A stretch of DNA of 42,435 nt, from positions 1 through 42,435 of the forward strand of contig JACRHD010000040.1 of NCBI GenBank assembly GCA_016234115.1, in the 5' to 3' direction. Source of the DNA: Nitrospirota bacterium (GTDB lineage Bacteria > Nitrospirota > Thermodesulfovibrionia > UBA6902). Below the pieces are notes generated by a model, which did no database searches, had not been told where the DNA came from, and was given only the letters and a program-made list of their open reading frames with translations. Positions 1 to 19,702 of the stretch are shown one piece after another. The translations under genes were made by a program, and so were the position numbers. How positions within the stretch are numbered: position 1 is the first letter of the stretch; each line of letters begins with the position of its first letter.

Positions 1-125
1 AGGTCTATTTCGTTGTCAATCAGGTAATGCAGAGTGTACTCAAATGTGCCGGGGATTATCTGCTTGTCAAAATGGATCGGTATGAATTTCCCCTGCGAGT
101 AATCGTAATCTTTGTATCTCGCCAT
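1..125 (-). CDS. IS1182-like transposase, N-terminal part (runs off window)
   Basis: The minus strand reads an open frame from ATG at 125 to the window edge (41 codons). It begins MARYKDYDYSQGKFIPIHFD and contains PGTFEYTLHYLIDNEIDL. This matches the start of IS1182/IS5-group DDE transposases, in which a short basic start is followed by a P-x-x-F-x-x-Q-(I/V)-x-P-G-T-F-E-x-T motif. A good ribosome binding site (AGGAGG) lies 7 bases upstream of the ATG. The catalytic DDE residues would be outside the window, so intactness cannot be judged. It lies just beyond the last attC of the integron array, so it may have inserted into the next cassette and now bounds the visible array. Family assignment rests on recall of N-terminal sequence only. 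Confidence 0.75.
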   Translation of the reverse strand, partial: MARYKDYDYSQGKFIPIHFDKQIIPGTFEYTLHYLIDNEID

Positions 126-194
126 CAAGCCCTCCTAAGCGATGCAGGTTTTTCTTTGGCGATATTATAATTCTTTTTGGGACTTTTTCTACAG

Positions 195-328
195 CTTCAA
201 CGTAGAGTTGAGTGACGAGTGCCACTGAAAGACACTCGTCACTCAGAAACCGCTTCGCTGCTCTCAATCCATCCACATGCTAAAACAGCGGCCTGTGGCA
301 CTCGTTCATCTCCAACGTCTTGTTATGC
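195..328 (-). other. attC recombination site of cassette 3
   Basis: Minus-strand R'' is GCATAAC (328-322) and R' is GTTGAAG (201-195). Between them are complementary arms: GAGTGCCAC (about 293-306) pairs with the GTGGCACTC stretch (about 215-225), and the outer TGGAG/CTC parts also pair with small bulges. A second inverted repeat (GAGTGACGAGTG / CACTCGTCACTC, about 209-243) lies inside, so alternative folds exist. The R' departs from the GTTRRRY consensus at its last base. It directly follows the lipoprotein gene, as a cassette attC should. Confidence 0.8.
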
Positions 329-332
329 CTTT

Positions 333-1292
333 TTATTCTTTAATACCAGCTAAAACGGAATATCCGTCACCACCAAAAAAGATTCCATCCGGTGTCATCA
401 AATAAAGACCTCCCAAACTTGGTGCATACACAAACCCTGTCCACGGAAAGTCATATATTACAGTAAGCGATCCAAGTGGCGTTGTTACATCTGTCCCGTT
501 CACAGTAACCGTGTACATTTGAGACTCACTGCTATCCAAAATATCGTATTTACCATTAACGCTTCCAGAAGTAATAGATTGCTGTTTCACTCCAATACCT
601 ATTCCTTTCTTTGTGCCAGTGAAGTCAATTACTATAACCTTACCTCCTCCAGCAGAAGGAAGAAGCATTGCATTGGCAATTTTCATTAATGAGCTGTTGT
701 ACACATATATAACGCCATTGCCTTGATCTGTCCATGTCCCACTAGAATCAGGGAGACCAATAGCATCCGTTTGATCCCAAGATTGCCAGACTCCTCCGGC
801 ACTAGCCTGAAACGTTCCATAAGAGCCACCGTAATTAGTGTATTCAACATAGTTGTATATCCCCGCTATTTCTGAAGTGGAATATCCTGTGGTTAGTTTC
901 GGTACTCCAACTATTAAGTCAATATTACTTAATGCTGCAATGACAAGATTGTTGGGTAATAATACGACGGGCACACCGTCACTCGTTGTATAAACATAAT
1001 CGCCATAGCCAGAAGCTTTACTAAGTGTTCCATTCCCTGTCGCACCAGCATAAGTACCCTCTATAAAACTGTAGGTATACTCCAGTGTTTCTGTATTAAC
1101 TGTATAAGTCAATAAATCTCCTATAGAAGCTGCTGCATTATAGGTTGTTCCAACGCTACCAGTACCTCCACCATTATCATCATCTTTGCTGCTTCCACCA
1201 CCGCCGCCGCCACCGCCACATGCAGTTAAGTATCCCGCAAGTAAGATACCTAATATTAATGTCCACATAATTCTAAAACTGCTTTTCATCAT
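333..1292 (-). CDS. poly-glycine lipoprotein, cassette 3 gene
   Basis: This 319-residue protein has a type II signal peptide. The basic start MMKSSFR is followed by a hydrophobic segment ending in a LTAC lipobox, with the lipidated Cys near residue 25. Eight glycines and a SSKDDDNGGG linker then tether the protein to the membrane. The remainder is rich in Thr, Ser, Gly and Tyr and looks like a beta-rich secreted domain; I do not recognise its family. A second Met directly follows the first, so either could start translation; GGGG purines lie about 6-10 bases upstream. It is the only gene of integron cassette 3, between two attC sites, and was therefore probably acquired by site-specific recombination. 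It is AT-richer than the CODH/ACS region. Function is unknown; surface exposure is inferred from the lipobox. Confidence 0.85.
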   Translation of the reverse strand: MMKSSFRIMWTLILGILLAGYLTACGGGGGGGGSSKDDDNGGGTGSVGTTYNAAASIGDLLTYTVNTETLEYTYSFIEGTYAGATGNGTLSKASGYGDYVYTTSDGVPVVLLPNNLVIAALSNIDLIVGVPKLTTGYSTSEIAGIYNYVEYTNYGGSYGTFQASAGGVWQSWDQTDAIGLPDSSGTWTDQGNGVIYVYNSSLMKIANAMLLPSAGGGKVIVIDFTGTKKGIGIGVKQQSITSGSVNGKYDILDSSESQMYTVTVNGTDVTTPLGSLTVIYDFPWTGFVYAPSLGGLYLMTPDGIFFGGDGYSVLAGIKE

Positions 1293-1339
1293 AAAACCCC
1301 CTCTTTACTAAAGATTAAGACCGCTACGCAGCCTCTAAG

Positions 1340-1473
1340 GCATAACGCTAAGCTCAGTGAACCGAACCACTTGAGCTCATCAAAAAGCAATCAAACCGAT
1401 TCGCTGTCCTTATACCAATTACAAGCCTAAAAAGTGTCTTGTGGTTCGGTTTCACTGCAGCGCGTTGTTATGT
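1340..1473 (-). other. attC recombination site of cassette 2
   Basis: On the minus strand the site runs ACATAAC (R'', 1473-1467), then CGCGCTGCAGTGAAACCG, then a long variable loop, then CGGTTCACTGAGCTTAGC and GTTATGC (R', 1346-1340). The arms AGTGAAACCGAACCAC and GTGGTTCGGTTCACT pair almost perfectly, with one extra base on one arm. This is the usual attC architecture with an extrahelical base that fixes strand choice. Length is 134 bp. It is the best-formed attC in the array. Confidence 0.92.
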
Positions 1474-1477
1474 GCTG

Positions 1478-2479
1478 CTATCTTATATTTGCTGGTAACA
1501 ACCAACCAAAAACACTTAAAGCTCCGCCCACACTCGTCGGATCCAACGGATACTTATCTCTGGGTTGAAGTAAATTCAAGTAAGCTGATGGCTTAGTATC
1601 AAAGCTACCATCTTCTTTACGCATATACGCTTTATAGCAATAACCGTTTGTGACAAGAACGCCTCGACAAGTTGGAAAATCCTTAGCGTAAAGGTGTGCT
1701 TGCTGTGGCGCATAATCAAGTCCCTGTTCAAATCCCTTAGTTTCAACGATAAGAATGCATTCCCTCTCAGATTTATTTTTAAATGGCTTAGGGAAGCAAG
1801 CAATATCAATTTTGCCGTTGTTGCAAGGAAGTTCAATTTTGAGTTGTTGTTCAGACCACCCGAGAGCAAGCAATAAAGGAACGACAAGGAACGATCTCGT
1901 TTCGTGCTCTCTTACATCGCTCCATGTGCATTTTTCATAATAATACTTTGCGAGAAGACGTATCCTATTTATCGTGTTTGTAAGATCAGCCGCAGAAGAT
2001 GCCCTTAATCCCTCTGCAATGAGATGCTCAAGAAGTTGATCGTCGCTAATCATATTAGTGCTTGATGGTTCTGGTTCATGATTATGAACCGGCAATAATA
2101 AAAGATCATTAGCTATTTGTTGGTGTCTGCTTTGAGGAAGTCTCTGTATTGTATTTATTGTAAGTCCACTAGTCTTGATTGGATCATCAGGGATATGCCA
2201 ATCGACATAGCAGTATGCTGGTAAATCCCACCCATCAAAGTCACGTAACCATAATTTATCTTCACATCCGATTGCTTTTCCATCCCTCTCAACAACTTCA
2301 CCTGCAGCAACAATTTGCGATAATCCTTGCTTAAGGACGACGATGTCTCCCACGGTAACGTCTTTCATAGCCTTTATTTGTGAATCGCCTCCAACAAAGG
2401 CTATGCCATGTTTAATAAAATAGTCCGTATAGTTTCGGCCAAAAGCTCCCGCTGCGATCTGCCAGTATGTCTTACTCAC
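1478..2479 (-). CDS. putative cassette-borne nuclease: EVE-like N-terminus plus PD-(D/E)XK domain
   Basis: This 333-residue protein is the single gene of integron cassette 2. The N-terminal ~110 residues (YWQIAAGAFGRNYTDYFIK..., then VGDIVVLKQG and AAGEVVE) resemble the small beta-barrel of EVE/PUA-like modules that some restriction enzymes use to read modified bases. Residues about 195-300 look like an HsdR-N-type PD-(D/E)XK nuclease core: an RSFLVVPLLLALGW helix, then KIDIACF (candidate metal-binding Asp), then ILIVETKG (E-x-K), then GVLVTNG. A linker with a helical segment joins them. The family reading comes from motif shape, not a search, and the sensor part is the less certain. The start sits just inside the cassette boundary (crossover at 2501/2500). 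AAGGAGA lies about 9-14 bases upstream of the ATG. A phage- or plasmid-defence role is inferred. Confidence 0.7.
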   Translation of the reverse strand: MSKTYWQIAAGAFGRNYTDYFIKHGIAFVGGDSQIKAMKDVTVGDIVVLKQGLSQIVAAGEVVERDGKAIGCEDKLWLRDFDGWDLPAYCYVDWHIPDDPIKTSGLTINTIQRLPQSRHQQIANDLLLLPVHNHEPEPSSTNMISDDQLLEHLIAEGLRASSAADLTNTINRIRLLAKYYYEKCTWSDVREHETRSFLVVPLLLALGWSEQQLKIELPCNNGKIDIACFPKPFKNKSERECILIVETKGFEQGLDYAPQQAHLYAKDFPTCRGVLVTNGYCYKAYMRKEDGSFDTKPSAYLNLLQPRDKYPLDPTSVGGALSVFGWLLPANIR

Positions 2480-2494
2480 TTTGAATCTCCTTGC

Positions 2495-2614
2495 ACATAA
2501 CGATTAGTTGAGCAATGGGAGTAAAGACGAAAAAATATATATCCCATTTGCTGTGCTGTATGATATCTGATTTTGTAATCGCATAATCCCATTTGCTCCA
2601 ACGCCAGGTTGGAC
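2495..2614 (-). other. attC recombination site of cassette 1
   Basis: R'' is GTCCAAC (2614-2608) and R' is GTTATGT (2501-2495) on the minus strand. The inner arms GTTGGAGCAAATGGGA and TCCCATTGCTCAAC pair with two single-base bulges, which is normal for attC. Length is 120 bp. R'' is complementary to GTTGGAC at 4283-4277, so this attC belongs to a cassette that begins next to the integrase. It lies downstream of the IS91-family transposase. Confidence 0.88.
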
Positions 2615-2814
2615 GGTTCCTATGTAATTTATAATCCGGACCCGTACCGTTTTAATTGGCCCGGATGGCATCTTGCAAGAAGATAATGAAATGCCATAAT
2701 CGCAATTTGATACCCTATAATCATCTTTCCTTTTTCTTGCCCATATGAATAGGCCTTTTGAAGCATCTGGGCGCATATTTTTTGTTACTTTGCCATTTTC
2801 TCGCTCTCAGCATC

Positions 2815-3978
2815 TTAAGCAGCTTGTCGCACATATCGATCACCCGGACCGGAAAAGACTTTGTCACGCGGTATGTTATCAAGACGTACAAGTCTCCTTC
2901 CGCAAACGGGACAAAGCTCCGCATGGTTTCTACCACGGTTTTCACTGTATGTCTGCCAGTCAAGTTCTGTGGTCTCTTTCACCGGCGACTGTCCTAATTT
3001 AGCCCGACAATCTGCCAATTCAGTTTTTGCCGTCGGCGCATACAGCCCGTAATACCTCACTACCTTTGTGTTCGCTTCAGGCACATGCTGAAAGTACCTC
3101 GTTAAAAAATCAGCAACCGGCAAGGTCATCACGTTGCCGTTCTTTTCTCCAAGCCGGTAACGAAAGCTCACTTCGCTTCCGTTGAACGACTCTATCCGCC
3201 TGTTTGATATCGCCCCACCTCGAATATAACGCGACAGATACGTCAACACCCCTTTGCCGTATTCATAACGCTCCCGGATATTCACATTCCATTTCACCCG
3301 CCCAAGCTTGTTCCTCATGTTCTTCCATCGCTGCCTGCTCATCATATCAGGCAACTTCAGTTGCCCCTTCTCAATTGCCTTATCTATGTACGCCAGCAAC
3401 TTCCCGCGATACACCGCCATTACCGCCCGGACCGGCAGAAGATACCCATTGTTTCTCGTTTTCCATTGCCCATCTTCCGACAGGCCGCCTTCCGTGATCA
3501 GGCAATGAATATGAGGATGAAGAAGCTGTGTCTGTGTCCACGTGTGCAAGGCCGCTATTATCCCGGGCTTCCCTCCGATATGCCTTTCATCAAGAAATAA
3601 TTCAAACAGCGTGTCACGCACCGCTGTAAACAGGATATTCGTCATCCGCTTCTTGTTGAATCGCCATATCTCATGCAGCTCATGCGGTATTGTGAAGATC
3701 ATATGGTAGTGCCCGCACTTAAGCAGTTTCTCACTCTGCTTCCTCAGCCATTGCTCGATCTGCAGCCAGTTGCATTGCGGACACATCCGGTTCCTGCATG
3801 AATTGTACCAGTGCCGCTGATAATGTCCCTCAGGACATGCCTGCACATGCCCCCCAAGTGCCGATGTCCTGCACTCTATCAATGCCTGCGCCGCCTTGTG
3901 CACATATCCAGGCATGCGGTGTTGCTGTCGAAACGAAGCATAACTCATCTTCAGTATCTCCTGCACCGAAGAGCCCAT
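2815..3978 (-). CDS. IS91-family (HUH, Y2-type) transposase
   Basis: This 387-residue protein has an N-terminal zinc-binding region (CPEGHYQRHWYNSCRNRMC, then CNW) and a HUH relaxase-like core. The metal-binding motif HPHIHC is followed by candidate catalytic tyrosines in TYLSRYIRGG. The C-terminus adds a second Cys pair (CPVCGRR). These are the hallmarks of IS91-type rolling-circle transposases. AGGGGAC precedes the ATG. The gene lies inside integron cassette 1, between the zinc-ribbon gene and the cassette's attC, so the element probably inserted into an existing cassette. Its oriIS/terIS ends were not identified; they should lie within 2615-2814 and 3979-4013 or slightly beyond. The reading frame is full length with no internal stop, so it could be active. 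Confidence 0.9.
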   Translation of the reverse strand: MGSSVQEILKMSYASFRQQHRMPGYVHKAAQALIECRTSALGGHVQACPEGHYQRHWYNSCRNRMCPQCNWLQIEQWLRKQSEKLLKCGHYHMIFTIPHELHEIWRFNKKRMTNILFTAVRDTLFELFLDERHIGGKPGIIAALHTWTQTQLLHPHIHCLITEGGLSEDGQWKTRNNGYLLPVRAVMAVYRGKLLAYIDKAIEKGQLKLPDMMSRQRWKNMRNKLGRVKWNVNIRERYEYGKGVLTYLSRYIRGGAISNRRIESFNGSEVSFRYRLGEKNGNVMTLPVADFLTRYFQHVPEANTKVVRYYGLYAPTAKTELADCRAKLGQSPVKETTELDWQTYSENRGRNHAELCPVCGRRLVRLDNIPRDKVFSGPGDRYVRQAA

Positions 3979-4013
3979 CTGTTGTCCCCTTTAATTAAAA
4001 CTTCAGCCTGCTA

Positions 4014-4223
4014 CTACCAAGTTTCCATATCTAACGCCGTCATCTGCCCCTGCCCGATTTCAGTCAATAATACTTTGTCCGATGATATTATTCCGCACTT
4101 CGGACATACTATTTTGTTTTCATATTTCGGCCTCTCGTTGGCCTTTGTCGGAAATGTTACCTTCCCAACATCACAATCAAATATGCTCCCGCATTCCTTG
4201 CATTCAAAATTGATCTCAGCCAT
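4014..4223 (-). CDS. small zinc-ribbon protein, likely first cassette gene
   Basis: This 69-residue protein begins MAEINFECKECGSIFDCDVG and has a second pair in CPKCG. The two CxxC pairs, about 30 residues apart, should form one zinc ribbon. The start is preceded by a weak AGGAA. It lies 54 bp inside the attI-proximal crossover at 4283/4282, the position of a first cassette gene, and reads away from intI as cassette genes do. The IS91-type transposase follows 35 bp downstream. No specific function is recognisable; small zinc ribbons of this kind often bind nucleic acid or act as protein adaptors. Confidence 0.65.
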   Translation of the reverse strand: MAEINFECKECGSIFDCDVGKVTFPTKANERPKYENKIVCPKCGIISSDKVLLTEIGQGQMTALDMETW

Positions 4224-4276
4224 TGTCCATTCCTACAATATATTCCCCGTCATTCCCGATTCTTCCGAATCGTTTA

Positions 4277-4283
4277 GTCCAAC
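4277..4283 (-). other. attI core site (crossover G|TTGGAC)
   Basis: The minus strand reads GTTGGAC, which fits GTTRRRY exactly. It sits between the divergent integrase and the first cassette gene. It is the exact complement of the R'' of the attC at 2495-2614, as required for the start of that cassette. The rest of attI would extend toward the integrase; its integrase-binding repeats were not resolved. Confidence 0.8.
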
Positions 4284-4293
4284 AGATATTCGA

Positions 4294-4352
4294 CTGCAGC
4301 AGCCATTATTGAATATTTACGCTCCTATATAGCGCAATAATATCTGCTGCAG
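4294..4352. repeat. 59-bp near-perfect inverted repeat beside attI
   Basis: CTGCAGCAG, two spacer bases, ATTATTG, spacer and CGCT are mirrored by AGCG, CAATAAT, two bases and CTGCTGCAG. The dyad starts 11 bp from the attI crossover on the integrase side. It could be a structural part of attI, an operator for intI or cassette expression, or a remnant of an older recombination site. No T-run follows, so a terminator is unlikely. Confidence 0.85.
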
Positions 4353-4472
4353 TATAGTTTTTATAATGATTATAAATTACACGTGATGCACATGCGTCCA
4401 TTTGAGGTTACCCCTCTTGGTCTCTATTAAGAATCTTAAAAGTGAAAGAAATACGCTTCGAGAAAGTAATTT

Positions 4473-4603: not shown

Positions 4604-5965
4604 ATGAATAAACAATCAAATAATAATTTATCCGTTGCAGGTGACTTTTGGACGGACTATTCGAAGCTGGTTATTAAAAGCGGGGTGCTGCAAAAGAATG
4701 TGAAATGGCATATTCACTGGTTGCAGGAATTTGCCGATTTCATAAAAGGGAAATCATTGCGCGCGTGCGCCGTTGAAGACGCCCGGCGGTTCCTCGCATA
4801 TCTTTCCGGCAAGAACAGGATTCAGGACTGGCAGGTGGAGCAGGCAAAGAATGCGCTTCTGATAGTGTACAGGGACATGTTTAATGCTTCCTGGTCGTCA
4901 CAAATAGCGGACATGTCCTTCAAAATAACTCATTCAGAAATCAAACAAGCCGGTCGTGAATGCGAGGACATACATTTCCAGGATGAATTGCCTCCACCGG
5001 AAATAATCTCTGCGTATCAAGGTATATTTGAAAAACTGCGCACCGAGATACGTTACCGTCATTATTCCATCCGTACGGAAAAGACTTATGAACAGTGGAT
5101 TCTCCGCTTTTTGCATTATCATAAACAGAAACCTGCTGAACAAATCCTGGCTGCCGACGTAAAGAGTTACCTTGATTATTTAGCGGAAACGCGGAATGTT
5201 GCGGCGAGCACGCAAAACCAGGCGCTTAATGCGATCGTATTTTTGTATGAGCAGGTATTGGACCGGAAGATAGGGGAAATCGGTGATTTCATCAGGGCCA
5301 AGAGGCCGAAACGTCTTCCGGTCGTGCTGACACGCGATGAGGTGAACCGCCTGCTTGATAATTTACCGGACACATGCGCGCTCATGGCGGGGCTGCTTTA
5401 TGGGAGCGGCTTAAGGCTGATGGAATGCATTCGTCTCCGGACCAAAGATATAGATTTTGAACAAAGACAGGTACTGGTGAGGGACGGGAAGGGGCAGAAA
5501 GACCGGATCACAATGCTGCCCCGGCGGTTTCATGACCAACTTAAGGAGCAGATTGCCTATGCGAAAAAATTGCATGAGAAAGATCTGTCGGATGGTTACG
5601 GAGATACATATATCTGGCCGTCCCTGGCCCGCAAATATAAAAATGCGTCCCGCGAGTGGATATGGCAATATGTGTTCCCGGCAGACCGTCTGTCCGTTGA
5701 CCCGAGGACAAAGGAGGTCCGGAGACATCACATTCACGAGACTGTCCTGCAACGGGCCGTCAATAAGGCAGCATCAAAAACAGGCTTGACCAAAAAAGTA
5801 AGCTGCCACACCCTGCGCCACTCCTTCGCCACGCATCTCCTTGAAGGCGGCTACGACATCCGCACGGTGCAGGTACTGTTAGGACATTCCGACGTCTCTA
5901 CGACCATGATCTATACGCATGTATTAAATACGCCGGGGCTGGCGGTGAGGAGTCCGGTGGATTGA
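4604..5965 (+). CDS. intI: integron integrase with N-terminal extension
   Basis: This 453-residue tyrosine recombinase catalyses attC x attI and attC x attC exchange. The catalytic set is intact: Arg in [13 protein letters not shown] (about 270), His and Arg in [11 protein letters not shown] (about 402 and 405), His in [10 protein letters not shown] (about 428), and Tyr in IYTHV (437). The integron-specific insertion is present ([13 protein letters not shown] and RRHHIHE, about 348-380), which separates it from XerC/D. Usual integron integrases have about 320-340 residues. Here an extra ~130-residue helical region precedes a normal core-binding domain ([20 protein letters not shown]). GGGGGGAC precedes the ATG. 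It is divergent from the cassettes. No obvious LexA box was found upstream. Confidence 0.95.
5924..5962 (+). repeat. 39-bp sequence duplicated at 6631-6669 (intI 3' end copy)
   Basis: The last codons of intI ([12 protein letters not shown] region) recur at 6631-6669 with one mismatch in 39 bases. The two copies are in direct orientation and bracket the two-gene module at 6018-6532. Confidence 0.95.
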
Positions 5966-6730: not shown

Positions 6731-8746
6731 TTATGCTTCCGTCATTACTTCCTTCAGCCATACAAGCCGTGAAGAGTAAATCACCGGCTTATTGATGGAC
6801 TCGTTGAGCTCGGCGGGATTGACGTCGAGGCCCTGTTTTTTCTCAAACGGTCTGAACTTAGGTTTGTCCTTGGCCTGAAACGCGCTCTTCATTGCCGCGG
6901 CCGACTCCTTGATCGGGCTTCCCATGACCTTTGAAAGCTCGATCAATATATTCTTGTGCTGCTTCGAATCTCCCGCGGGCTCGACGGATTTCCGGACGTC
7001 CCTGACCTTGCCCAGGTAGTTGATTATCGTGCCGTCGGATTCAAGAAATGTCGCGGCGGGAAATACGACGTCAGCCTGTTTGGCGAGATCAGTCATGAAT
7101 GAGGTCTGGGCAATAAGGAATTTCACATCCGGTCTTTTGGCAGCCGGGACTTCGCCGACCGCGTAGAGGACCTCCACGCCCCCGGACACCATTTCCCCGT
7201 ATGTCTTCCCTTCGGTAGTGAGCCCCAGGGACACCACTCCCTTTGCGTTTGCCTCAAAAGGGACTGCGACCACTTTCACATCGGTCAGCAATGCAATGTT
7301 TCTTGCCGCGGTGAACAGGGAAGGGTGGCAGAATATAACGGGCGACTTTGCCTCGGAAAGCAGGGTCGCGGCCTTTTCAGCGTCTTCCGTCGCCGAAAGT
7401 CCCGAGACAGCGTCTTGGAGCGCCTTGTCGGCGGCCTTGCCTTTTGCCGCCAGCGCCTTTGCGATCTGTGCAAGAGAGGACGCTTCATCAGCGGTCATAT
7501 TTACTGTCGCGACCGAGGAAGCCCTCGTCTCCCCGGAATTTATTATTAGGAGTTTGGCGCCCCTTGAAACCCTCCTCCTGATTGAAGCGTCAAGCGCGGG
7601 GAGGACCCGTTCCCACTGCGAAGGGTTTAAACCGGCCAATAAAATAACGTCGGCGGAGTCAATGTCCGCCTGGTCCGAGAACTTCATCGAATCCGCGTCG
7701 GCGTAAAGACTTGCGGTTGTATCGACGTTCTTCGTCTTCACAACGTCGGACGCGAATTTTGAAAGCACAAAGGCGTCCTGGTTGAGGATGCCCGCCGTGC
7801 TTATGACGCCTGCGCTGCCGCCGGCGGCCTTTAATTTTTCAGCCGCAAGGGCCAGGGCGTCTTTCCATGCGGCCTCCTTCAGCTCTCCGTTTACCCTGAT
7901 CAGCGGCGAAGTCACCCTCGCGTCCGAAGAAACGGAATCGAACCCGAACCTGCCGGTGGCGCATATGTATTTCTCCACGGAGCCCTCATCGCCTTCGGAA
8001 TTGACTTTTACAAGGCCGCCGTCTTTAGTGCTGACGACTATATCGCAGCCGTTTCCGCACGAAAGGCATGTCGAATTAGTAGTTGTGTAATCCCACTCCC
8101 TGCCTTTTCTCCAGCGGTCAGCTTCAAGCAGGGCGTTGACGGGACACGCATCCACGCAACTGCCGCAGAAGGTGCAGCCTGATTCCTGAAGGGGCTTGTC
8201 CATCGCGGTGCCGATCTTTGAGCCCACACCCCTTCCCATGAAATCGAGCACGCTGGTCCCCTGCTCCTTGCATACCCTCACGCACCTTCCGCACAGTATG
8301 CAATAGTCGGAGTCCCTTTTAATGAACGGGTTTGCAGCGTCCACAGGATATCCGAATTTCTTCCTCGTGAAGTTCGACTCCTTGATCTCGTGGTCGTAAG
8401 CGTACTGCTGAAGAGTGCAGACCCCGGCCTTTGTGCAGGTCATGCAGTCCAGGGGGTGCATGGAGAGGATGAGGTCGAGAATGAACTTCCTCGTCTCTTC
8501 GATCTGCGGGGTGGTTGTTTTGACGTTCATGCCTTCCTTTACCCGCGTGATGCAGCCGACCGAATGGCCCTTTGCCCCTTCCACCTCGACAAGACACATC
8601 CTGCACGCGCCGATACCCTTCATGCCTTTGAGATAGCAGAGGTTGGGGATGTGGACCCCCGCCGCCTGTGCAGCGTCGATGAGGTTGGTCCCCTCGGGGA
8701 CCTTTACATCCTTACCGTCTATTTTTAAGCTTACTGTTTTCGACAT
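6731..8746 (-). CDS. NuoG-like iron-sulfur subunit of an NAD(P)H:ferredoxin-type oxidoreductase
   Basis: This 671-residue protein has the cluster arrangement of complex I NuoG and related soluble diaphorase partners. An N-terminal [2Fe-2S] domain has CYLKGMKGIGACRMC plus a later Cys. A His-Cys cluster follows (HPLDCMTCTKAGVC), then two [4Fe-4S] ferredoxin motifs (CILCGRCVRVC, CTFCGSCVDAC). Next is a molybdopterin-family [4Fe-4S] motif (CLSCGNGC) with a shortened molybdopterin-like domain. I see no catalytic Cys/Sec arrangement of an active formate dehydrogenase and no H-cluster motifs, so it is probably an electron conduit. GGGAGGA precedes the ATG. It is the last gene of the CODH/ACS operon, after NuoE- and NuoF-like subunits. 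Coupling of ferredoxin from CO or acetyl-CoA oxidation to NAD(P)H is inferred from context. Confidence 0.88.
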   Translation of the reverse strand: MSKTVSLKIDGKDVKVPEGTNLIDAAQAAGVHIPNLCYLKGMKGIGACRMCLVEVEGAKGHSVGCITRVKEGMNVKTTTPQIEETRKFILDLILSMHPLDCMTCTKAGVCTLQQYAYDHEIKESNFTRKKFGYPVDAANPFIKRDSDYCILCGRCVRVCKEQGTSVLDFMGRGVGSKIGTAMDKPLQESGCTFCGSCVDACPVNALLEADRWRKGREWDYTTTNSTCLSCGNGCDIVVSTKDGGLVKVNSEGDEGSVEKYICATGRFGFDSVSSDARVTSPLIRVNGELKEAAWKDALALAAEKLKAAGGSAGVISTAGILNQDAFVLSKFASDVVKTKNVDTTASLYADADSMKFSDQADIDSADVILLAGLNPSQWERVLPALDASIRRRVSRGAKLLIINSGETRASSVATVNMTADEASSLAQIAKALAAKGKAADKALQDAVSGLSATEDAEKAATLLSEAKSPVIFCHPSLFTAARNIALLTDVKVVAVPFEANAKGVVSLGLTTEGKTYGEMVSGGVEVLYAVGEVPAAKRPDVKFLIAQTSFMTDLAKQADVVFPAATFLESDGTIINYLGKVRDVRKSVEPAGDSKQHKNILIELSKVMGSPIKESAAAMKSAFQAKDKPKFRPFEKKQGLDVNPAELNESINKPVIYSSRLVWLKEVMTEA

Positions 8747-8768
8747 AAAATCCTCCCTGTAATTTAAA

Positions 8769-8855
8769 AGTAGATAGTAGCAAGTAGTTAGTAGTTAGGG
8801 GACGAGCTTGGATAAACTTTCCCCTTAGCTACCAACTACTAACTACTTGCTACTT
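8769..8855. repeat. inverted repeat, family B (TAGTAAGTAGTTAGTAG)
   Basis: Arms AGTAGCAAGTAGTTAGTAGTTAGGG-like and CCCTTAGCTACCAACTACT-like fold back over a short loop. Related copies fill the spacers at 18559-18644 and 19612-19695. Each lies between two genes of the same operon. Confidence 0.9.
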
Positions 8856-8864
8856 ATTTATCCG

Positions 8865-9458
8865 TTACACTTCCACTATCTCGCTTTCCTTAACACTTAC
8901 AAATACAATCCCGCCTGTCGGGCAGACCTTCATGCATTCACCGCATTTTGAGCACCTCTTCTGCGCTATCTCAAAGGGACTATAACCCGACAAATAGGAT
9001 TTCCTCTTTTCTCCGATGATCGCGTTGTCCCTGCATACATCGAGGCAGTCGCCGCACATATTGCATTTGTCCGGTATGACAGTGTATTTGAAATAATCCA
9101 TGCATTCACGCTGCGCGCAAACGCCTGAAACATGGTCGGTGAACTCCCTGGAATCAACGTGTTCGAGCATGTATTTCGCGGTGTCTTTTCCCTTTTTGCA
9201 CATCGAGGCCTCCGACATGTTTGAGGCGATCCGCTTTACGGCGGCTATGTCCTCGCCCGAGCCGCTCCCGCCGGCAAGCCTCCTGAGCCTCACCCTGGCC
9301 TCGTAACTGCCGAAAGAGCAGGGGAAGCATTTACCGCACATCGGTCCTGAAAGAAATTCATCCACAAAATAGAGGGATTTCTGCACGGGACATTTCTTCT
9401 CGTCCGCCTCTTTTTTTATGTCTTCAAGTTTTTTCTCTTTCTGTTCTTCCTGGGTCAT
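8865..9458 (-). CDS. stand-alone NuoF C-terminal-like iron-sulfur protein with two ferredoxin clusters
   Basis: This 197-residue protein lacks the FMN/NADH domain of NuoF but keeps a NuoF-type [4Fe-4S] module: CGKCFPCSFGSYEA, then a distant Cys in SMCKKG. This aligns by eye with CGKCPPCRIGTYQM and SLCGLG in the neighbouring NuoF-like protein. Two ferredoxin motifs follow (CNMCGDCLDVC and CSKCGECMKVC). The N-terminus is lysine/glutamate-rich and looks flexible. AGGAG precedes the ATG. It sits between the NuoF- and NuoG-like genes, so it is probably an extra electron-transfer subunit of that complex. It looks like a partial duplication of the NuoF gene that lost nucleotide binding. Confidence 0.82.
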   Translation of the reverse strand: MTQEEQKEKKLEDIKKEADEKKCPVQKSLYFVDEFLSGPMCGKCFPCSFGSYEARVRLRRLAGGSGSGEDIAAVKRIASNMSEASMCKKGKDTAKYMLEHVDSREFTDHVSGVCAQRECMDYFKYTVIPDKCNMCGDCLDVCRDNAIIGEKRKSYLSGYSPFEIAQKRCSKCGECMKVCPTGGIVFVSVKESEIVEV

Positions 9459-9477
9459 AAGTGCTCCTGTTTTCTTG

Positions 9478-9573
9478 AATCCCCCTCTTTAGCAAAGAGG
9501 GGTCAGGGGAGATTTCTTAGGAATTATCCGTTTTCAAAATCCCCCCTTGCCCCCCTTTTACAAAGAGGGGAGG
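9478..9573. repeat. inverted repeat, family C (AATCCCCCTCTTT...AAAGAGGGGAGG)
   Basis: This ~96-bp element has arms of alternating C- and G-runs (CCCCCTCTTT/AAAGAGGGG) and an AT-rich centre. A related copy lies at 16518-16612. No coding capacity is visible; it may be a small non-autonomous mobile repeat. Confidence 0.85.
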
Positions 9574-9584
9574 TTATGTTCACA

Positions 9585-9610
9585 TACGGGCGGGGTCACC
9601 CCGCCCCTAC
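9585..9610. repeat. GC-rich palindrome, family A
   Basis: ACGGGCGGGGTCACCCCGCC followed by CCTA matches the family A unit at 6680-6705. It abuts the family C repeat, so two repeat families are stacked between the NuoF-like gene and the next gene. Confidence 0.88.
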
Positions 9611-11485
9611 ACGTTTTTCTTGTCTTTGCTGTTTCTCTATCTTCACCGCTCCGATGGGACACGCGGTATAACACGCCTTGCAACTGGTGCAGTCGTCCTG
9701 GTCTATGAGGAATTTGTTCCGCAGCTCCTTCACGGCGCCGAAGGCGCACGCCTGTTTGCAAAGGCCGCAGAGAAAACATTCGCTGTGCTCGATCCTGAAC
9801 CTGCCCAGACCGCTGCACGCCTTGGCCCTGCAGTATTTGTCGTGAATGTGCTCCTCATATTCTTCCCTGAAATATTTTATTGTGGTCAGGACCGGATTAG
9901 GCGCGCTGCTTCCAAGACCGCAGAGAGAGCCCTTAACAATATTCTTGCCCAAAGCCTCAAGCTTCTCGATGTCGCCGGGCTGTCCCTTTCCTGAGGTTAT
10001 TCTCTTCAGAATCTCAAGCATCTGGTAAGTGCCGATCCTGCACGGGGGGCACTTGCCGCAGGACTCGGACTGGGTAAAGGAAAGGAAGAATTTGGCGACG
10101 TCCACCATGCATGTATCTTCGTCCATGACGACCATTCCGCCTGAACCCATCATGGAGCCTACGGACGCTAATGAATCGAAGTCCACGGACAGGTCGAGGT
10201 GTTCGGGGGGAATGCATCCTCCCGAAGGGCCGCCCGTCTGGACCGCCTTGAATTTCTTGTCTCCCAAAATGCCGCCGCCGATGTCATATATTATTTCCCT
10301 GAGGGTGATACCCATCGGGACTTCGACGAGCCCGGTATTCTTGACCTTTCCCGTCAGCGCGAAGACCTTTGTGCCTGGTGAATTTTTCGTTCCTATTGAA
10401 AGGAAGTAGTCCGAACCCCTTTCAACAATTACTGGGACGCAGGCGTAGGTCTCGATATTATTAAGATTGCTCGGATATCCCCAGGCCCCGCCTCCCTGCT
10501 CTGAAAGTCTCGGCGGCCTCGGCCTCGGGAACCCTCTTTCACCTTCAATCGACGCGACGAGGGCCGTGGATTCCCCGCATACGAACGCGCCCGCGCCTTC
10601 CCTGATATCGACTGTGAAACTGAAATCGCTGCCGAGGATGTTTTTACCCAATAACCCTAATTCCACGGCCTGATTTATCGCTATACCGAGGTTCTTGACG
10701 GCAAGCGGGTATTCGTGTCTGACGTAAATGATTCCATACTGCGCGTTGATGGCGTATGCGCAGAGGGCCATTCCCTCAAGAAGGCTGTGAGGGTCGCCTT
10801 CCATGATCGACCTGTCCATGAAGGCCCCGGGGTCGCCTTCGTCGCCGTTTGCGATTACAAACTTGATGTTGCCGGACGCCGATTTTACGTGCTTCCATTT
10901 TTTCCCCGCGGGGAACCCGGCCCCGCCCCTGCCCCTGAGGTTGGCCTTATCGACTTCGGCAAGCGTCTCGTCGGGCGTCATGGTCGAAAGCGCCTTTCCC
11001 AACGCTGCGTACCCGCCGACCGCTATATAATGGTCTATGTTGCACGGGTCGATCTTCCCGTTGTTTCTGAGCGCGATCCTTTTCTGTTTTTTGTAGAAGG
11101 GGACGTCGGTCATTACCGGCACCGGTTCGCTGAGGAAGTCGTCCCTGTAAAGGCCCTGTCTGTACGGCATGCTCCCGAGGATGGAATAGCTCATGATCCA
11201 TGGAACGCTTGCCGGCTTGGTCCGCTGGTAGAAGATGTCCAGAGGTTCGACTTTCAGGACCGGGCCTTTCTGGCATATGCCCTGACACCCGGTCTTAACG
11301 ATCTCCAGGTCGATACCCGACTGGGAGGCCTCTTTCTGAAAGGCGTCGATGACCTGATGGGCGCCTGTTGCCGTGCAGGCGGTGCCGCAGCAGACCCTGG
11401 CCCTGAGCCTGTCCGGCATGAACGTCCCGGCCTTGAGTTTTTCGCTGTACTGCTTTAATTCGTCAATACTGCTGAGTTTGCTCAT
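9596..11485 (-). CDS. NuoF-like NADH-binding subunit (HydB/HndC type) with fused NuoE-like and ferredoxin domains
   Basis: This 629-residue flavoprotein has, in order: a thioredoxin-like [2Fe-2S] domain (CCGTACTATG... then CQGICQKGP), an FMN/NADH-binding domain (GRGGAGFPAGKKW, GDEGDPGAFMDR), an SLBB-type segment, and a NuoF [4Fe-4S] module (CGKCPPCRIGTYQM). Two C-terminal ferredoxin motifs follow (CFLCGLCKQAC and CTSCKACYTAC). This layout is that of the diaphorase subunit of soluble bifurcating hydrogenases and NAD-linked formate dehydrogenases. AAAGGTGGA precedes the ATG. It lies between the NuoE-like gene and the extra iron-sulfur subunit. The likely role is electron exchange between NAD(H) and the iron-sulfur chain. 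Bifurcation is possible but not provable from sequence. The 3' end runs slightly into the family A repeat. Confidence 0.92.
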   Translation of the reverse strand: MSKLSSIDELKQYSEKLKAGTFMPDRLRARVCCGTACTATGAHQVIDAFQKEASQSGIDLEIVKTGCQGICQKGPVLKVEPLDIFYQRTKPASVPWIMSYSILGSMPYRQGLYRDDFLSEPVPVMTDVPFYKKQKRIALRNNGKIDPCNIDHYIAVGGYAALGKALSTMTPDETLAEVDKANLRGRGGAGFPAGKKWKHVKSASGNIKFVIANGDEGDPGAFMDRSIMEGDPHSLLEGMALCAYAINAQYGIIYVRHEYPLAVKNLGIAINQAVELGLLGKNILGSDFSFTVDIREGAGAFVCGESTALVASIEGERGFPRPRPPRLSEQGGGAWGYPSNLNNIETYACVPVIVERGSDYFLSIGTKNSPGTKVFALTGKVKNTGLVEVPMGITLREIIYDIGGGILGDKKFKAVQTGGPSGGCIPPEHLDLSVDFDSLASVGSMMGSGGMVVMDEDTCMVDVAKFFLSFTQSESCGKCPPCRIGTYQMLEILKRITSGKGQPGDIEKLEALGKNIVKGSLCGLGSSAPNPVLTTIKYFREEYEEHIHDKYCRAKACSGLGRFRIEHSECFLCGLCKQACAFGAVKELRNKFLIDQDDCTSCKACYTACPIGAVKIEKQQRQEKRVGAG

Positions 11486-11666
11486 GGTAAATCCACCTTT
11501 TCCTGTATGTACTTAGAAGATAACGATAGCGGTTAGACCTGTTTCTAACCGCCATCCGTTATATTTTTTTATCTGCTTACTACCGACTACTATTCTTCTG
11601 TATGATGTTCCGCTGGAATCTACGTGCCGCTCTGAATGAATTCTCAAATCATGTATTTTATTTTGT

Positions 11667-11692
11667 ACGGGCGAGGTCACCTCGCCCCTACG
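11667..11692. repeat. GC-rich palindrome, family A
   Basis: ACGGGCGAGGTCACCTCGCC followed by CCTACG. It abuts the stop of the NuoE-like gene. The 200-bp spacer 11486-11692 also holds a hairpin (GCGGTTAGA...TCTAACCGC, about 11531-11551) and a decayed family B piece (about 11575-11595). Confidence 0.88.
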
Positions 11693-12166
11693 TTATTTCT
11701 TTATTTCCTCAATGACCTCCCCAACTTTTTTCATGTCTATTTCGCCTACTATATCTTCATTGATCGTAGCGACCGGCGCGAGACCGCAGCAGCCGATGCA
11801 CCCTACCGTCTCGAGCGTCATCGCGAGGTCCCTGGTCGTCTCGCCTTCTTCTATCCTGAATTCGTCCTTGATCTTATCGAGGACCTTGGACGCGCCCCTG
11901 ACGTGGCAGGCAGTGCCGGTGCACACCCTGATTATCTTTCTGCCGCGTGGCGTAAAGTAGAACTGCTTGTAGAAAGTGGCCGTGCTGTAGACGTCCGAAA
12001 GAGGGATGCTCAGGTTCTCTGCCAGTTTTCTCAGCTCAGTTTCGGGAAGATAGTTGTGCTCCTGCTGTATCTTCTGGAAGGCGTGGATAAGCACCCCCCT
12101 TTTTTTCTGGCCTTCAGCCAATACGTCGCCGACATGGCCGATGATCTCATCAGTTTTCAGACTCAT
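11693..12166 (-). CDS. NuoE-like [2Fe-2S] subunit (HydC/HndA type)
   Basis: This 157-residue protein from the chosen start has an N-terminal helical domain (AFQKIQQEHNYLPETELRKL) and a thioredoxin-like [2Fe-2S] domain. The four cluster cysteines are seen in CTGTACHV (two residues of the set) and GCIGCCG. It is the standard partner of the NuoF subunit next door. The longer frame starts at 12187. I chose the Met at 12166 because GGAGGGATCA sits directly before it and because it begins MSLKTDEIIG, as in relatives. The start overlaps the end of cooS by 17 bases, so the redox module is translationally linked to the CODH gene. Confidence 0.92.
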   Translation of the reverse strand: MSLKTDEIIGHVGDVLAEGQKKRGVLIHAFQKIQQEHNYLPETELRKLAENLSIPLSDVYSTATFYKQFYFTPRGRKIIRVCTGTACHVRGASKVLDKIKDEFRIEEGETTRDLAMTLETVGCIGCCGLAPVATINEDIVGEIDMKKVGEVIEEIKK

Positions 12167-14168
12167 TGATCCCTCCCACTCCGGCATGGGGCACTGCCGC
12201 CTTCTCGATCTCTCTTCTCGCGGCCATATCCATGAGCACCCTTTCGGCGCCGAATTTGCCCGGCTCGTACTTCCTGAGTTTCAGGGCTTCCCTGGCCTTG
12301 TCGATATAGTCGAAAGTCATGGCGAGTATCTTTTCAGGGTCCGGCTCAAAATGCAGCGCTCCCTTGAATCTCTCGAACCAGACTTCGGTCATGATCCTCG
12401 TGACTTCCCGGCTTGCCCCGACAGGCGATTCGCCTCCGAATATTACCGGAACGCCGGAGGCGGCAAAGTAGCAGCCGATGGATATCGCCTTTTCCGTGAT
12501 GAATTCCGGGGCGATACCGACTGCGGGCATTCCCCCGATCTCGTCGGACAGTCCGCCTTCCGCCGCCATAGCGGTTGCGATGGTCAGTATCCTTGTATTG
12601 TCGACGCATGAGCCAAGATGAAGAATGGGCGGGATACCTATCGCCTCGCAGACTTCTCTCAACCCTGGGCCTGCGTTCTCCATGGCCATCTCGGGCGTAA
12701 GGAACCCTGCCGTGCCGCATGAGGCCGAACTACAGCCTGTCGATACGACAAGGACATCGTTTTTAATCAGTTCGATGGCCAGGAATTTATGCATTCCCGT
12801 TGAAGGGACCCTCGGATTGTCACATCCCGCGAGACCCACAACTCCGCGGATCCTTCCGGCCATGATAGCGTCGTTAAGCGGCCTGAAGGAGGCGCGCCAT
12901 CTTCCGCCCTGCATATACTCAATGTATTCGTGCGAAAAACCCGCGATCACGGGAAACGTTTCCGTAACATGGCTTCCTTCCGCTTTCCTGTTCGGATAAT
13001 TGTCAATGGCAAGCTTAACGATCTCTCTTGCGATATCTTTTGCGTTGTGCTCGTCGAACTGAACGTGCGTTGCGCCCGGCATCCTTACCTTTGAAGAGGT
13101 GGTCACAATTTTTGTGTGGAACTTCTTTGATACTTCCGTCAAAGCAGGCATAATGCACTGCACATCCACAACCATCGCCTCTATGAGTCCCGTCATTATC
13201 CCTAACTCCTGGTTCGTGAAACCGCCGGCAGTGGGAATACCGTGGCGCATCATCACTTCGTTGGCGGTACAGCACATCCCGCCCAGATTTATGCCTTTCG
13301 CGCCTTTTGATTTGGCGTATTCAATCATCTCCGGCTCATACACAACATCGACTATCATTTCCGCTAAATTGGGTTCATGGCCGTGGATAACAATATTGAC
13401 TTCGTCGTCCTTGAATATGCCCAGACTCGCCTCCGCCTTTACCGGAGAAGGCGTTCCGAACAGGACGTCGGTGATGTCCGTCGATATCATACTGCCGCCC
13501 CAGCCGTTTGCTACGGCCGCTTTCAGGGCATGGTTCAGGATGGAGTCGGCATCGGCGTCCATACCCATTGTGGTCCTGTCCAGGGTTTCAGCGATTTCCC
13601 TGTCAATACCCCTCGGGACAATATCCCATTTCTTCCATCTTCCCTGGGTCTTCTTCGGCGCGCGCCTGACGTAGCTTACTTCTCCTCTTTGCCTGCCGAA
13701 ATCCTCTATGAATTTCAGGGCCACGTCTTTTGCCACATCGAGCACAGGTCTGCCTTCGGCTGCAACGCCGATTATTTCAGCGACCCTGTATAATTTTTTC
13801 ACGTCTTTTATCTTGAAGTCTTTGGCCTCACCCTCAGCGACCGCCAACAGGGTAAACGCCATGTCTCTTCCATGATCGCCGTGGCAGGCGGTTCCGGCAG
13901 CGACCATCCTCGCCAGATTTCTGGCGGCGATTACCGGAAGGGTAGCCCCGCAAATACCGCGGCCTTCTTCCTCGGCCTTGGTCCCGACGAGCCTGCATGG
14001 TCCCATATGGCATACCTTGCAGCACGCGCCGGATTCGCCGATAGGGCAGGGTTTCATTTTCTCGGCCCTTGTAAAACAGGTTTCATACCCGCGTGAGTCT
14101 CCCCATTCGAGAACTATCGCCGCTTCTTTATTAGCCGTTTTGGCTGGTTTGTGTCCGTTATTTTTCAT
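12150..14168 (-). CDS. cooS/acsA: anaerobic carbon monoxide dehydrogenase catalytic subunit
   Basis: This 672-residue Ni-Fe CODH interconverts CO and CO2 with ferredoxin. The N-terminus carries the B/D cluster cysteines (CPIGESGACCKVCHMGPC). Ligands of the C-cluster are recognisable in order: His in HGHEPN, Cys in GGMCCT, Cys in VDVQCIMP, Cys in AGCDNP, Cys in STGCSSASCG and Cys in LGSCVDN. Length fits the family. GGAGGATTTAG precedes the ATG. It follows acsB with a short repeat-filled spacer and overlaps the NuoE-like gene. Co-location with acsBCDE argues that it is the CODH half of the CODH/ACS complex and not a stand-alone energy-conserving CooS. Confidence 0.97.
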   Translation of the reverse strand: MKNNGHKPAKTANKEAAIVLEWGDSRGYETCFTRAEKMKPCPIGESGACCKVCHMGPCRLVGTKAEEEGRGICGATLPVIAARNLARMVAAGTACHGDHGRDMAFTLLAVAEGEAKDFKIKDVKKLYRVAEIIGVAAEGRPVLDVAKDVALKFIEDFGRQRGEVSYVRRAPKKTQGRWKKWDIVPRGIDREIAETLDRTTMGMDADADSILNHALKAAVANGWGGSMISTDITDVLFGTPSPVKAEASLGIFKDDEVNIVIHGHEPNLAEMIVDVVYEPEMIEYAKSKGAKGINLGGMCCTANEVMMRHGIPTAGGFTNQELGIMTGLIEAMVVDVQCIMPALTEVSKKFHTKIVTTSSKVRMPGATHVQFDEHNAKDIAREIVKLAIDNYPNRKAEGSHVTETFPVIAGFSHEYIEYMQGGRWRASFRPLNDAIMAGRIRGVVGLAGCDNPRVPSTGMHKFLAIELIKNDVLVVSTGCSSASCGTAGFLTPEMAMENAGPGLREVCEAIGIPPILHLGSCVDNTRILTIATAMAAEGGLSDEIGGMPAVGIAPEFITEKAISIGCYFAASGVPVIFGGESPVGASREVTRIMTEVWFERFKGALHFEPDPEKILAMTFDYIDKAREALKLRKYEPGKFGAERVLMDMAARREIEKAAVPHAGVGGINESEN

Positions 14169-14187
14169 CTAAATCCTCCAAATATTA

Positions 14188-14252
14188 GGGTCAAGGGTCA
14201 AGTAGCAAGGGTCAAGGGAAAACCGTGCCCCTTGCCCCATGACCCCTGCCCC
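14188..14252. repeat. low-complexity inverted repeat (GGGTCAAGGGTCAAG / CCTTGCCCCATGACCC)
   Basis: The acsB-cooS spacer is an inverted repeat built of TCAAGGG-type units. The same style of repeat lies before cooC (21955-22000). Confidence 0.85.
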
Positions 14253-14258
14253 TTTTTT

Positions 14259-16472: not shown

Positions 16473-16517
16473 CTTAAACCTCCTAAATTAGATTCCGGTA
16501 CATGAACGGGTGGTATT

Positions 16518-16612
16518 ATTCCCCCTTTGAAAAAGGGGGTCAGGGGGAATTTTGCAATAAAACAATTGGTCCCAAAATCTCCCCTAACCCCTCTTTTCCA
16601 AAGAGGGGAATC
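16518..16612. repeat. inverted repeat, family C
   Basis: ATTCCCCCTTTGAAAAAGGGGG and the later CCCCTCTTTTCCAAAGAGGGGAAT are mirrored arms around an AT-rich centre. It is the second copy of the element at 9478-9573 and sits between the Fur-type gene and acsB. Confidence 0.88.
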
Positions 16613-16655
16613 ATCCAATTCCGTGCAACAAAATGTTTACGACCATGTACCTTTT

Positions 16656-17045
16656 TTATTTACATTTCCGGCATGTGCCGAAAAACTCGATATTCTTGCC
16701 GGACACCTTGAATCCGCCGGCTGTTTCCTCGGGCAGACGTATATCGAAATCCTTATATACATCAAAGATACTGCTGCATTTTGTGCAGATGATATGATGA
16801 TGCGGACTCATGTCGGGGTCATATCTTTTTTTGGCGGGGTCTATTTTCAGCTCCCGGATATTTCCCTTTTCTTTTAAGGCCTCCAGCGTATTGTAAATCG
16901 TGGCAAACGACATAGTAGGATATTTCTTCTTTACCGACTTGTATATCTCATCGGCCGACGGATGCGCTTTGTTGCCTTCAAGATGCTTCAAAATCGCCAG
17001 ACGCTGCGGCGTCAGTTTAATGTTAAGTCGCCGATATCTTTCCAT
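16656..17045 (-). CDS. Fur-family regulator, PerR-like
   Basis: This 129-residue protein has the Fur-family winged helix (LTPQRLAILKHLEGN, then TIYNTLEALKEKG) and a dimerisation domain. The structural zinc site is formed by CTKC and CRKC. The regulatory metal site appears as DPDMSPHHH followed by later acidic residues, which fits PerR better than Fur, though a Zur or Nur role cannot be excluded. AAGGAA precedes the ATG. It is embedded in the CODH/ACS operon between acsC and acsB on the same strand. This suggests that the oxygen-sensitive pathway is tied to a metal or peroxide signal. No operator was identified. Confidence 0.9.
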   Translation of the reverse strand: MERYRRLNIKLTPQRLAILKHLEGNKAHPSADEIYKSVKKKYPTMSFATIYNTLEALKEKGNIRELKIDPAKKRYDPDMSPHHHIICTKCSSIFDVYKDFDIRLPEETAGGFKVSGKNIEFFGTCRKCK

Positions 17046-17059
17046 CGTCGTTCCTTTTT

Positions 17060-17155
17060 ATCCACAGATTACGCAGATTTCACAGATAAACAGGACTATC
17101 TGAAAGAACAACCTACTCAGGGCCTATATAACCTGTGCTGATCTGTGGATTACGT
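17060..17155. repeat. short relative of the CACAGATTACGCAGATT repeat
   Basis: The sequence TCCACAGATTACGCAGATTT is mirrored by GATCTGTGGATTACG. It shares the wording of the long elements at 25429-25606 and 37440-37611 but is much shorter and more decayed. Confidence 0.75.
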
Positions 17156-17198
17156 CCACCTATAAACATTATCAGATTGGAATCGTTATTGTAAAGAC

Positions 17199-18542: not shown

Positions 18543-18558
18543 CTCTTACCTCCGTAAA

Positions 18559-18644
18559 TTAGTAGTAAGCAGTTAGTAGTTAGTAGTTAAGGGATATATT
18601 CAAGAGCTTTTCCCTTAACTACTAACTGCTTGCTACTAACTACT
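18559..18644. repeat. inverted repeat, family B
   Basis: TAGTAGTAAGCAGTTAGTAG and CTACTAACTGCTTGCTACTA arms flank a short loop with GGGATATATTCAAGAGC. It fills the acsD-acsC spacer. Confidence 0.9.
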
Positions 18645-18654
18645 GTCTTTCAAT

Positions 18655-19596: not shown

Positions 19597-19611
19597 TTTA
19601 ACCTCCGTAAT

Positions 19612-19695
19612 TTAGTAGTAAGTAGTTAGTAGCTAAGGGAAGAAATTCACGCAGCTTCCCTCCCCCTAACTACTAACTACTTGCTGCTTGCTACT
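19612..19695. repeat. inverted repeat, family B
   Basis: TTAGTAGTAAGTAGTTAGTA and CTAACTACTAACTACTTGCT arms around a short centre. It fills the acsE-acsD spacer and is the third copy of the family in this operon. Confidence 0.9.
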
Positions 19696-19702
19696 GTCCT
19701 TT

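What the first reader, a model, noticed from the sequence alone, without database searches (positions are those of the whole stretch)
195..4283. Chromosomal integron whose three cassettes obey the R''/start complementarity rule exactly
Each cassette begins with a heptamer (GTTGGAC, GTTATGT, GTTATGC) that is the exact complement of the R'' in its own attC (GTCCAAC, ACATAAC, GCATAAC). Neighbouring sites do not share heptamers. Complete integrons with intI are not typical in this kind of autotrophic anaerobe, and the cassette genes have no named function. The exact boundaries allow each cassette to be defined to the base.
Basis: partly seen in the sequence, partly recalled or inferred. Interest (0 to 1): 0.8.

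Follow-up and report, generated by a model that had tools for sequence, protein, structure and literature searches.

The report
Real integron, capped by attC-targeting IS
The stretch is a genuine but ordinary chromosomal integron, a bacterial gene-capturing device, carrying three gene cassettes; what is new is that its last recombination site has been hit by a transposable element whose relatives, across a whole bacterial phylum, sit exactly at the point where integron cassettes are cut and joined.

Summary
The R''/start rule is exact here, and in 19 of 19 cassettes checked, so it is the normal mark of a cassette. The claim that complete integrons are unusual here is wrong: 22 of 37 genomes of this family carry an integron-integrase match, 18 over the curated cut-off.

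Three things go beyond the finding.
(1) The last heptamer, GTTGAAG (201-195), is not a cassette start. Positions 200-1 are the left end of an IS1182-family element. Its relatives, including ~156-bp MITEs, sit precisely at the attC crossover (CG|TT) in many Nitrospirota genomes. A second copy hits another attC on contig C29.
(2) Cassette 1 carries an IS91-family (HUH) transposase plus a zinc-ribbon gene. A homologous first cassette in another genus has both boundary heptamers changed together.
(3) IntI has a second core-binding domain, shared by a multi-phylum clade.

The same genome also holds an attI with a cassette but no adjacent intI (C29). The integron itself is ordinary. The attC-targeting IS1182/MITE family is, as far as I could search, undescribed.

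The parts
4604..5965 (+). intI, integron integrase, 453 aa, with a second N-terminal SAM-like core-binding domain (residues ~15-97)
   Evidence: TIGR02249 451.9 bits, cut-off 265; PDB IntI4 2a3v E 2e-87; PF13495 in residues 33-97, 33.7 bits, gathering 27; predicted 4-helix N domain mirrors the core-binding domain
4283..4400 (-). attI region (inferred limits); insertion point at G4283
   Evidence: conserved with relatives' intI-cassette intervals of the same type (L130, L134); G|TTGGAC is the first cassette junction
2501..4282 (-). cassette 1 (1782 bp): zinc-ribbon ORF, IS91-family transposase, attC1
   Evidence: start GTTGGAC and R'' GTCCAAC exact; homologous cassette in G008 with GTTGTAC/GTACAAC
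4014..4223 (-). 69-aa zinc-ribbon protein in cassette 1
   Evidence: no family over cut-off; 62% identical homologue before the IS91 gene in G008
2815..3978 (-). IS91-family (Y2 HUH) transposase in cassette 1
   Evidence: NF033538 378.9 bits, cut-off 125; PF04986 and PF14319
2495..2614 (-). attC1
   Evidence: held-out covariance model 36 bits, E 4.5e-9
1346..2500 (-). cassette 2 (1155 bp)
   Evidence: exact R''/start pair ACATAAC/GTTATGT
1478..2479 (-). cassette 2 protein, 333 aa, GTG start; likely PD-(D/E)XK nuclease
   Evidence: 56% identical to a Photobacterium toruni protein annotated HsdR N-terminal domain; conserved EHET, IDIACF and ETK motifs in a 3-way alignment
1340..1473 (-). attC2
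   Evidence: held-out covariance model 109.3 bits, E 2.5e-32
201..1345 (-). cassette 3 (1145 bp)
   Evidence: exact R''/start pair GCATAAC/GTTATGC
333..1292 (-). cassette 3 protein, 319 aa, predicted secreted lipoprotein with a glycine-rich linker
   Evidence: sequence only; no family over cut-off
195..328 (-). attC3; 195-200 are the first bases of the inserted IS
   Evidence: held-out covariance model 98.6 bits, E 6.1e-29; junction analysis
1..200 (-). left end of an IS1182-family element (terminal TTGAAGCTGTAGAAAAAGTC; transposase start codon near 125), cut by the contig end
   Evidence: same end at an attC on C29; relatives at CG|TT; NF033551 and PF05598 for relatives' longer ORFs

Best explanation
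This is a sedentary chromosomal integron of a Nitrospirota bacterium. IntI recombines folded single-stranded attC hairpins into attI, so cassettes enter next to intI and the array runs leftwards on the - strand: cassette 1 (zinc ribbon + IS91 transposase), cassette 2 (nuclease), cassette 3 (lipoprotein). The G|TT crossover of the third attC was then hit by an IS1182-family element that targets attC. After such an insertion both junctions read CG|TT, so the attC to its left keeps a usable core, and the IS or MITE becomes the front of the next cassette. Shown here: gene and site anatomy, the R''/start rule, recurrence of the IS and MITE ends at attC crossovers, and two MITE insertions that lie between an attC and the true start of a cassette. 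Inferred: that IntI is active, that the IS1182 transposase itself chooses attC, and that the IS or MITE can travel with a cassette.
For: IntI model, closest solved structure IntI4. Held-out covariance model on all three sites. 19/19 rule. Same attC type in arrays of relatives. IS end: window 1-201 and contig C29 1-201 are 98% identical up to the attC crossover and then diverge. An attC-blind pattern search of 396 phylum genomes hit 42 genomes, with few hits for the reversed-pattern control. 34 of 47 copies are preceded by CG; 18 of 47 have attC arm scores above the 95th percentile of 1008 control GTT positions, 9 of 47 above the 99th. Right ends read CAGACTCG|TT followed by cassette-start-like bases in nearly every copy with both ends. 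In L324 and L316 the right-junction heptamer (GTTAGCT, GTTAAGC) is the exact complement of the R'' of the cassette behind the MITE.
Against: The contig ends inside the IS, so its right end, its full transposase and the rest of the array are not seen here. attC1 scores much lower than the other two and folds only weakly. 13 of 47 motif copies are not preceded by CG; some are chance coding matches, but a few carry the transposase (L184, L325, L318). More than half of the copies do not pass the 95% arm-score control, partly because short attC types and contig ends defeat that score. No sign of recombination activity was testable.
Confidence: 0.87

Rival explanations
1. The IS1182 end at 1-200 is the start of a fourth ordinary cassette encoding a transposase, moved by IntI and present behind two different attC sites (C22 and C29).
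For: Identity between C22 and C29 ends exactly at the G|TT crossover, as a shared cassette would.
Against: The same 20-base end occurs with different interiors, has an inverted partner end, and forms ~156-bp MITEs without any attC of their own; in two cases the cassette behind it obeys the rule with the right junction, not the left.
Confidence: 0.1
2. Cassette 1 is not a cassette; an IS91 element inserted between attI and an older attC, using its own rolling-circle mechanism.
For: Different IS91-type elements lie at attI in G011 and in a Chloroflexi MAG, and their ends share TTGAACTAA with a non-integron copy; the 3' terminal hairpin of that subtype looks like an attC.
Against: For the window type the start heptamer and R'' are exact complements and changed together in G008 (GTTGGAC/GTCCAAC versus GTTGTAC/GTACAAC), and both 3' sites are hit by the attC model (36.0 and 36.2 bits). 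No copy of this IS91 type was found outside an integron in 47 genomes of the order.
Confidence: 0.25
3. The integron is a fossil: cassettes and IntI no longer recombine.
For: Only three cassettes are visible; an IS is inserted at the last attC; a lone degenerate attC lies on C10.
Against: IntI is an intact full-length ORF with the conserved RHRHY-type catalytic residues and the IntI-specific patch in the alignment; attC2 and attC3 score like sites in the long arrays.
Confidence: 0.2

Closest known systems
Sedentary chromosomal integrons (IntI / attI / attC)
   Same: Integron integrase divergent from an array of attC-bounded cassettes; R'' complementary to the cassette start
   Different: IntI has two core-binding domains, and the first cassette carries an IS91-family transposase
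IS1111-attC group insertion sequences (Tetu & Holmes 2008; Post & Hall 2009, as cited in PMC11187229)
   Same: Insertion sequences that target one end of attC sites of gene cassettes
   Different: Those have DEDD transposases with a guiding seekRNA; here the transposase is IS1182 family (DUF772), with ~156-bp MITE derivatives, sitting exactly at CG|TT
Group IIC-attC introns (own knowledge; mentioned in PMC7923331)
   Same: Mobile elements associated with attC sites
   Different: No intron or reverse transcriptase here; the elements are DNA IS and MITEs
ISCR1 / IS91-family elements of complex class 1 integrons
   Same: IS91-family transposase linked to an integron
   Different: There the element lies beside the 3' conserved segment; here the transposase gene is inside an attC-bounded first cassette

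Membership tests
Integron | integron integrase IntI | tested here: met
   TIGR02249 451.9 bits versus cut-off 265
Integron | attC sites with R''-L''...L'-R' structure | tested here: met
   held-out covariance model at all three sites
Integron | cassette start complementary to its own R'' | tested here: met
   3/3 in window, 19/19 in all arrays checked
Integron | attI next to intI | tested here: inconclusive
   interval conserved with relatives of the same attI type; attI function not testable
Integron | IntI-mediated recombination | not testable with these tools
   needs an experiment
IS1182 family (element at 1-200) | IS1182-type DDE transposase | tested here: inconclusive
   only 41 aa are in the window; homologous longer ORFs in relatives match NF033551 at 84-118 bits (cut-off 270 for the full protein) and PF05598 over cut-off
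IS1182 family (element at 1-200) | terminal inverted repeats | tested here: met
   in relatives' MITEs: TTGAAGCTGTAGAAAAAG ... CTTTTTCTACAGACTCG; right end not seen in this genome
IS1111-attC group | DEDD transposase of the IS110/IS1111 family | tested here: not met
   relatives' transposase ORFs match IS1182/DUF772 instead
IS91 family (cassette 1) | Y2 HUH transposase with zinc-binding domain | tested here: met
   NF033538, PF04986, PF14319
IS91 family (cassette 1) | oriIS/terIS ends and GAAC/CAAG target | tested here: inconclusive
   cassette ends coincide with attI/attC heptamers (GNAC); no independent copy found outside integrons

The most novel reading that the evidence does not exclude
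An IS1182-family insertion sequence and its MITEs form an attC-specific parasite of integrons, spread through Nitrospirota and probably other phyla. They insert exactly at the IntI crossover (CG|TT), regenerate the core on both sides, and so can ride with cassettes and relabel cassette starts.
Probability: 0.65. Interest if true: 0.65.

Novelty: new variant of a known kind. Interest (0 to 1): 0.5.

Why it matters
The integron adds little by itself. The element at its left edge would be a second, unrelated solution to attC targeting, next to the RNA-guided IS1111 group, and one that places MITEs at the exact strand-exchange point without destroying it. That makes testable whether a DDE transposase reads the folded single-stranded attC, whether IS-capped cassettes still move, and how much integron diversity in environmental bacteria is shaped by such elements. 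A conserved IntI clade with a duplicated core-binding domain is a ready comparison for how IntI holds its hairpin substrate.

Tried and rejected
Rfam on the whole window: nothing. The lone attC on C10 does not obey the rule and has lost its core: fossil. PADLOC hits for cassette genes are weak or partial and not used. AlphaFold of the cassette 2 protein without an alignment was uninformative (mean pLDDT 39). An own-genome search with PF05598 found nothing because only the first 41 aa are assembled. I first read 1-200 as a fourth, transposase-encoding cassette shared with C29; the phylum-wide pattern search and the MITE right ends overturned that. The IMG/VR exact-pattern scan returned mostly chance matches in coding sequence and is ignored. 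No attC was found near the Photobacterium homologue of cassette 2. The MITE has no match in plasmids. Literature searches for IS1182 at attC and for MITEs at attC gave nothing relevant; the library lacks many subscription papers.

Full report
1. Checking the observation. Cassettes read on the - strand. To avoid circularity I collected 12 attC sites from arrays of other genomes of the same family, whose consensus folds into a 22-pair stem with 11 compensated pairs and unpaired bases in the L box, and built a covariance model from those alone. Over eight arrays, 19 of 19 cassettes have R'' equal to the exact complement of their own start; shuffling starts gives 2.7 on average and 9 at most. The rule is therefore general, and useful as a ruler.

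2. The platform. The integrase scores 451.9 bits against TIGR02249 (cut-off 265) and its nearest solved structure is IntI4. In this family 22 of 37 genomes have a match and 18 pass the cut-off, so an integron is common here. Two relatives carry longer arrays of the same attC type (G035, at least seven sites; G015, at least four). The intI-cassette interval shows two attI types in the family; the window has one, contig C29 of the same genome has the other, followed by a protease-like cassette (boundaries GTTAGGA/TCCTAAC) but with no intI beside it. The phylum assignment (Nitrospirota) is inferred from named relatives such as L050/L134, whose integrase core is identical, and from the acetyl-CoA pathway genes nearby.

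3. IntI with two core-binding domains. Residues 33-97 match Phage_int_SAM_4 over its gathering score, besides the normal copy at 142-224. A predicted model (20 sequences, mean pLDDT 82) shows a four-helix N domain (15-25, 30-47, 57-68, 75-92) with the same helix pattern as the core-binding domain (139-151, 156-172, 183-195, 201-218). In a tree of 98 IntI cores, 40 of the 46 extended proteins form one group (support 84/91, drawn open) spanning Nitrospirota, Nitrospinota, Thermodesulfobacteriota and Pseudomonadota. No paper in the library describes this.

4. Cassette 1 carries an IS91-family transposase. It encodes a 69-aa zinc ribbon and an IS91 transposase. In another genus (G008) the same pair (62% and 68% identity) is again the first cassette beside a damaged intI; there the boundary heptamers are GTTGTAC and GTACAAC instead of GTTGGAC and GTCCAAC, and the attC model hits its 3' site at 36.2 bits, as it does here at 36.0. 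In 47 genomes of the order this IS91 type occurs only at these two places (apart from one 36%-identical element of the other subtype). G024 has the start of a similar IS91 gene in first position, cut by the contig end. G011 and a Chloroflexi MAG have a different type, tyrosine recombinase plus IS91, at attI. For that type a copy outside any integron has the same ends, and its 3' hairpin resembles a short attC, so I do not claim that it is a cassette.

5. The left edge is an attC-targeting IS. Window 1-201 and C29 1-201 are 98% identical up to the crossover and then differ. A search of 396 phylum genomes with the 20-base end, blind to attC, hit 42 genomes. Most copies read CG|TTGA... directly after an attC-like 3' arm: 34 of 47 are preceded by CG; 18 of 47 exceed the 95th percentile and 9 of 47 the 99th percentile of control arm scores. 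Copies with both ends show an inverted right end CTTTTTCTACAGACTCG followed by TT and a cassette-start-like heptamer; many are 156-157-bp MITEs with a conserved interior. In L324 and L316 the heptamer after the MITE (GTTAGCT, GTTAAGC) is the exact complement of the R'' of the cassette behind it, which places the insertion between the attC and the true cassette start. ORFs behind the end match IS1182/DUF772. Similar ends lie at attC-like sites in integron loci of Marinobacterium arenosum and a Gallionellaceae MAG; those loci were fetched by intI, so they are a biased sample.

6. What the cargo may do. Cassette 2 is 56% identical to a Photobacterium toruni protein annotated HsdR N-terminal and keeps nuclease-like motifs; a role in phage defence is plausible but untested. 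Cassette 3 is a predicted lipoprotein without family. Cassette 2 starts with GTG behind an AAGGAG within its first 20 bases (sequence). No clear promoter was found in the intI-cassette interval beyond chance.

7. Limits. Contig ends hide the right end of the IS and the rest of the array. The 4-base CGTT on both sides looks like a target duplication but was not tested against an empty allele. attC-targeting insertion sequences are known for IS1111 (PMC11187229); that an IS1182 type does this is, in the library searched, undescribed.

Noticed in passing
L012 (G000:C29) 1-1340: Second integron-like array in the same genome: type-B attI, protease-like cassette, attC, then the same IS1182 end; no intI beside it.
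   Followed up: partly
window 4604-5020: IntI carries a second SAM-like core-binding domain; 40 extended IntI group together across several phyla.
   Followed up: partly
L145 10671-13277 and L171: Tyrosine recombinase + IS91 elements whose 3' terminal hairpin (AATGCCTCCGGCACTG) with flanking GTTCAAC looks like a short attC; one copy sits in first-cassette position, one lies outside any integron.
   Followed up: partly
L154 6502-6632 (G000:C10:34501-34631): Lone degenerate attC (57.7 bits) behind a small secreted-protein gene; R' core lost.
   Followed up: yes
L324 1186-2400 (G028:C35): Two successive cassettes each capped by a 156-bp MITE at the attC crossover; the first carries an AbrB-like/PIN-like gene pair.
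   Followed up: partly
window 6731-20491: Acetyl-CoA pathway genes (CO dehydrogenase/acetyl-CoA synthase and NADH-linked dehydrogenase- or hydrogenase-like subunits) beside the integron, consistent with an autotroph; named from sequence by eye.
   Followed up: no
window 41522-42433: ORF with an HD-like N terminus and a helicase motif, resembling Cas3, at the right contig end; not tested.
   Followed up: no
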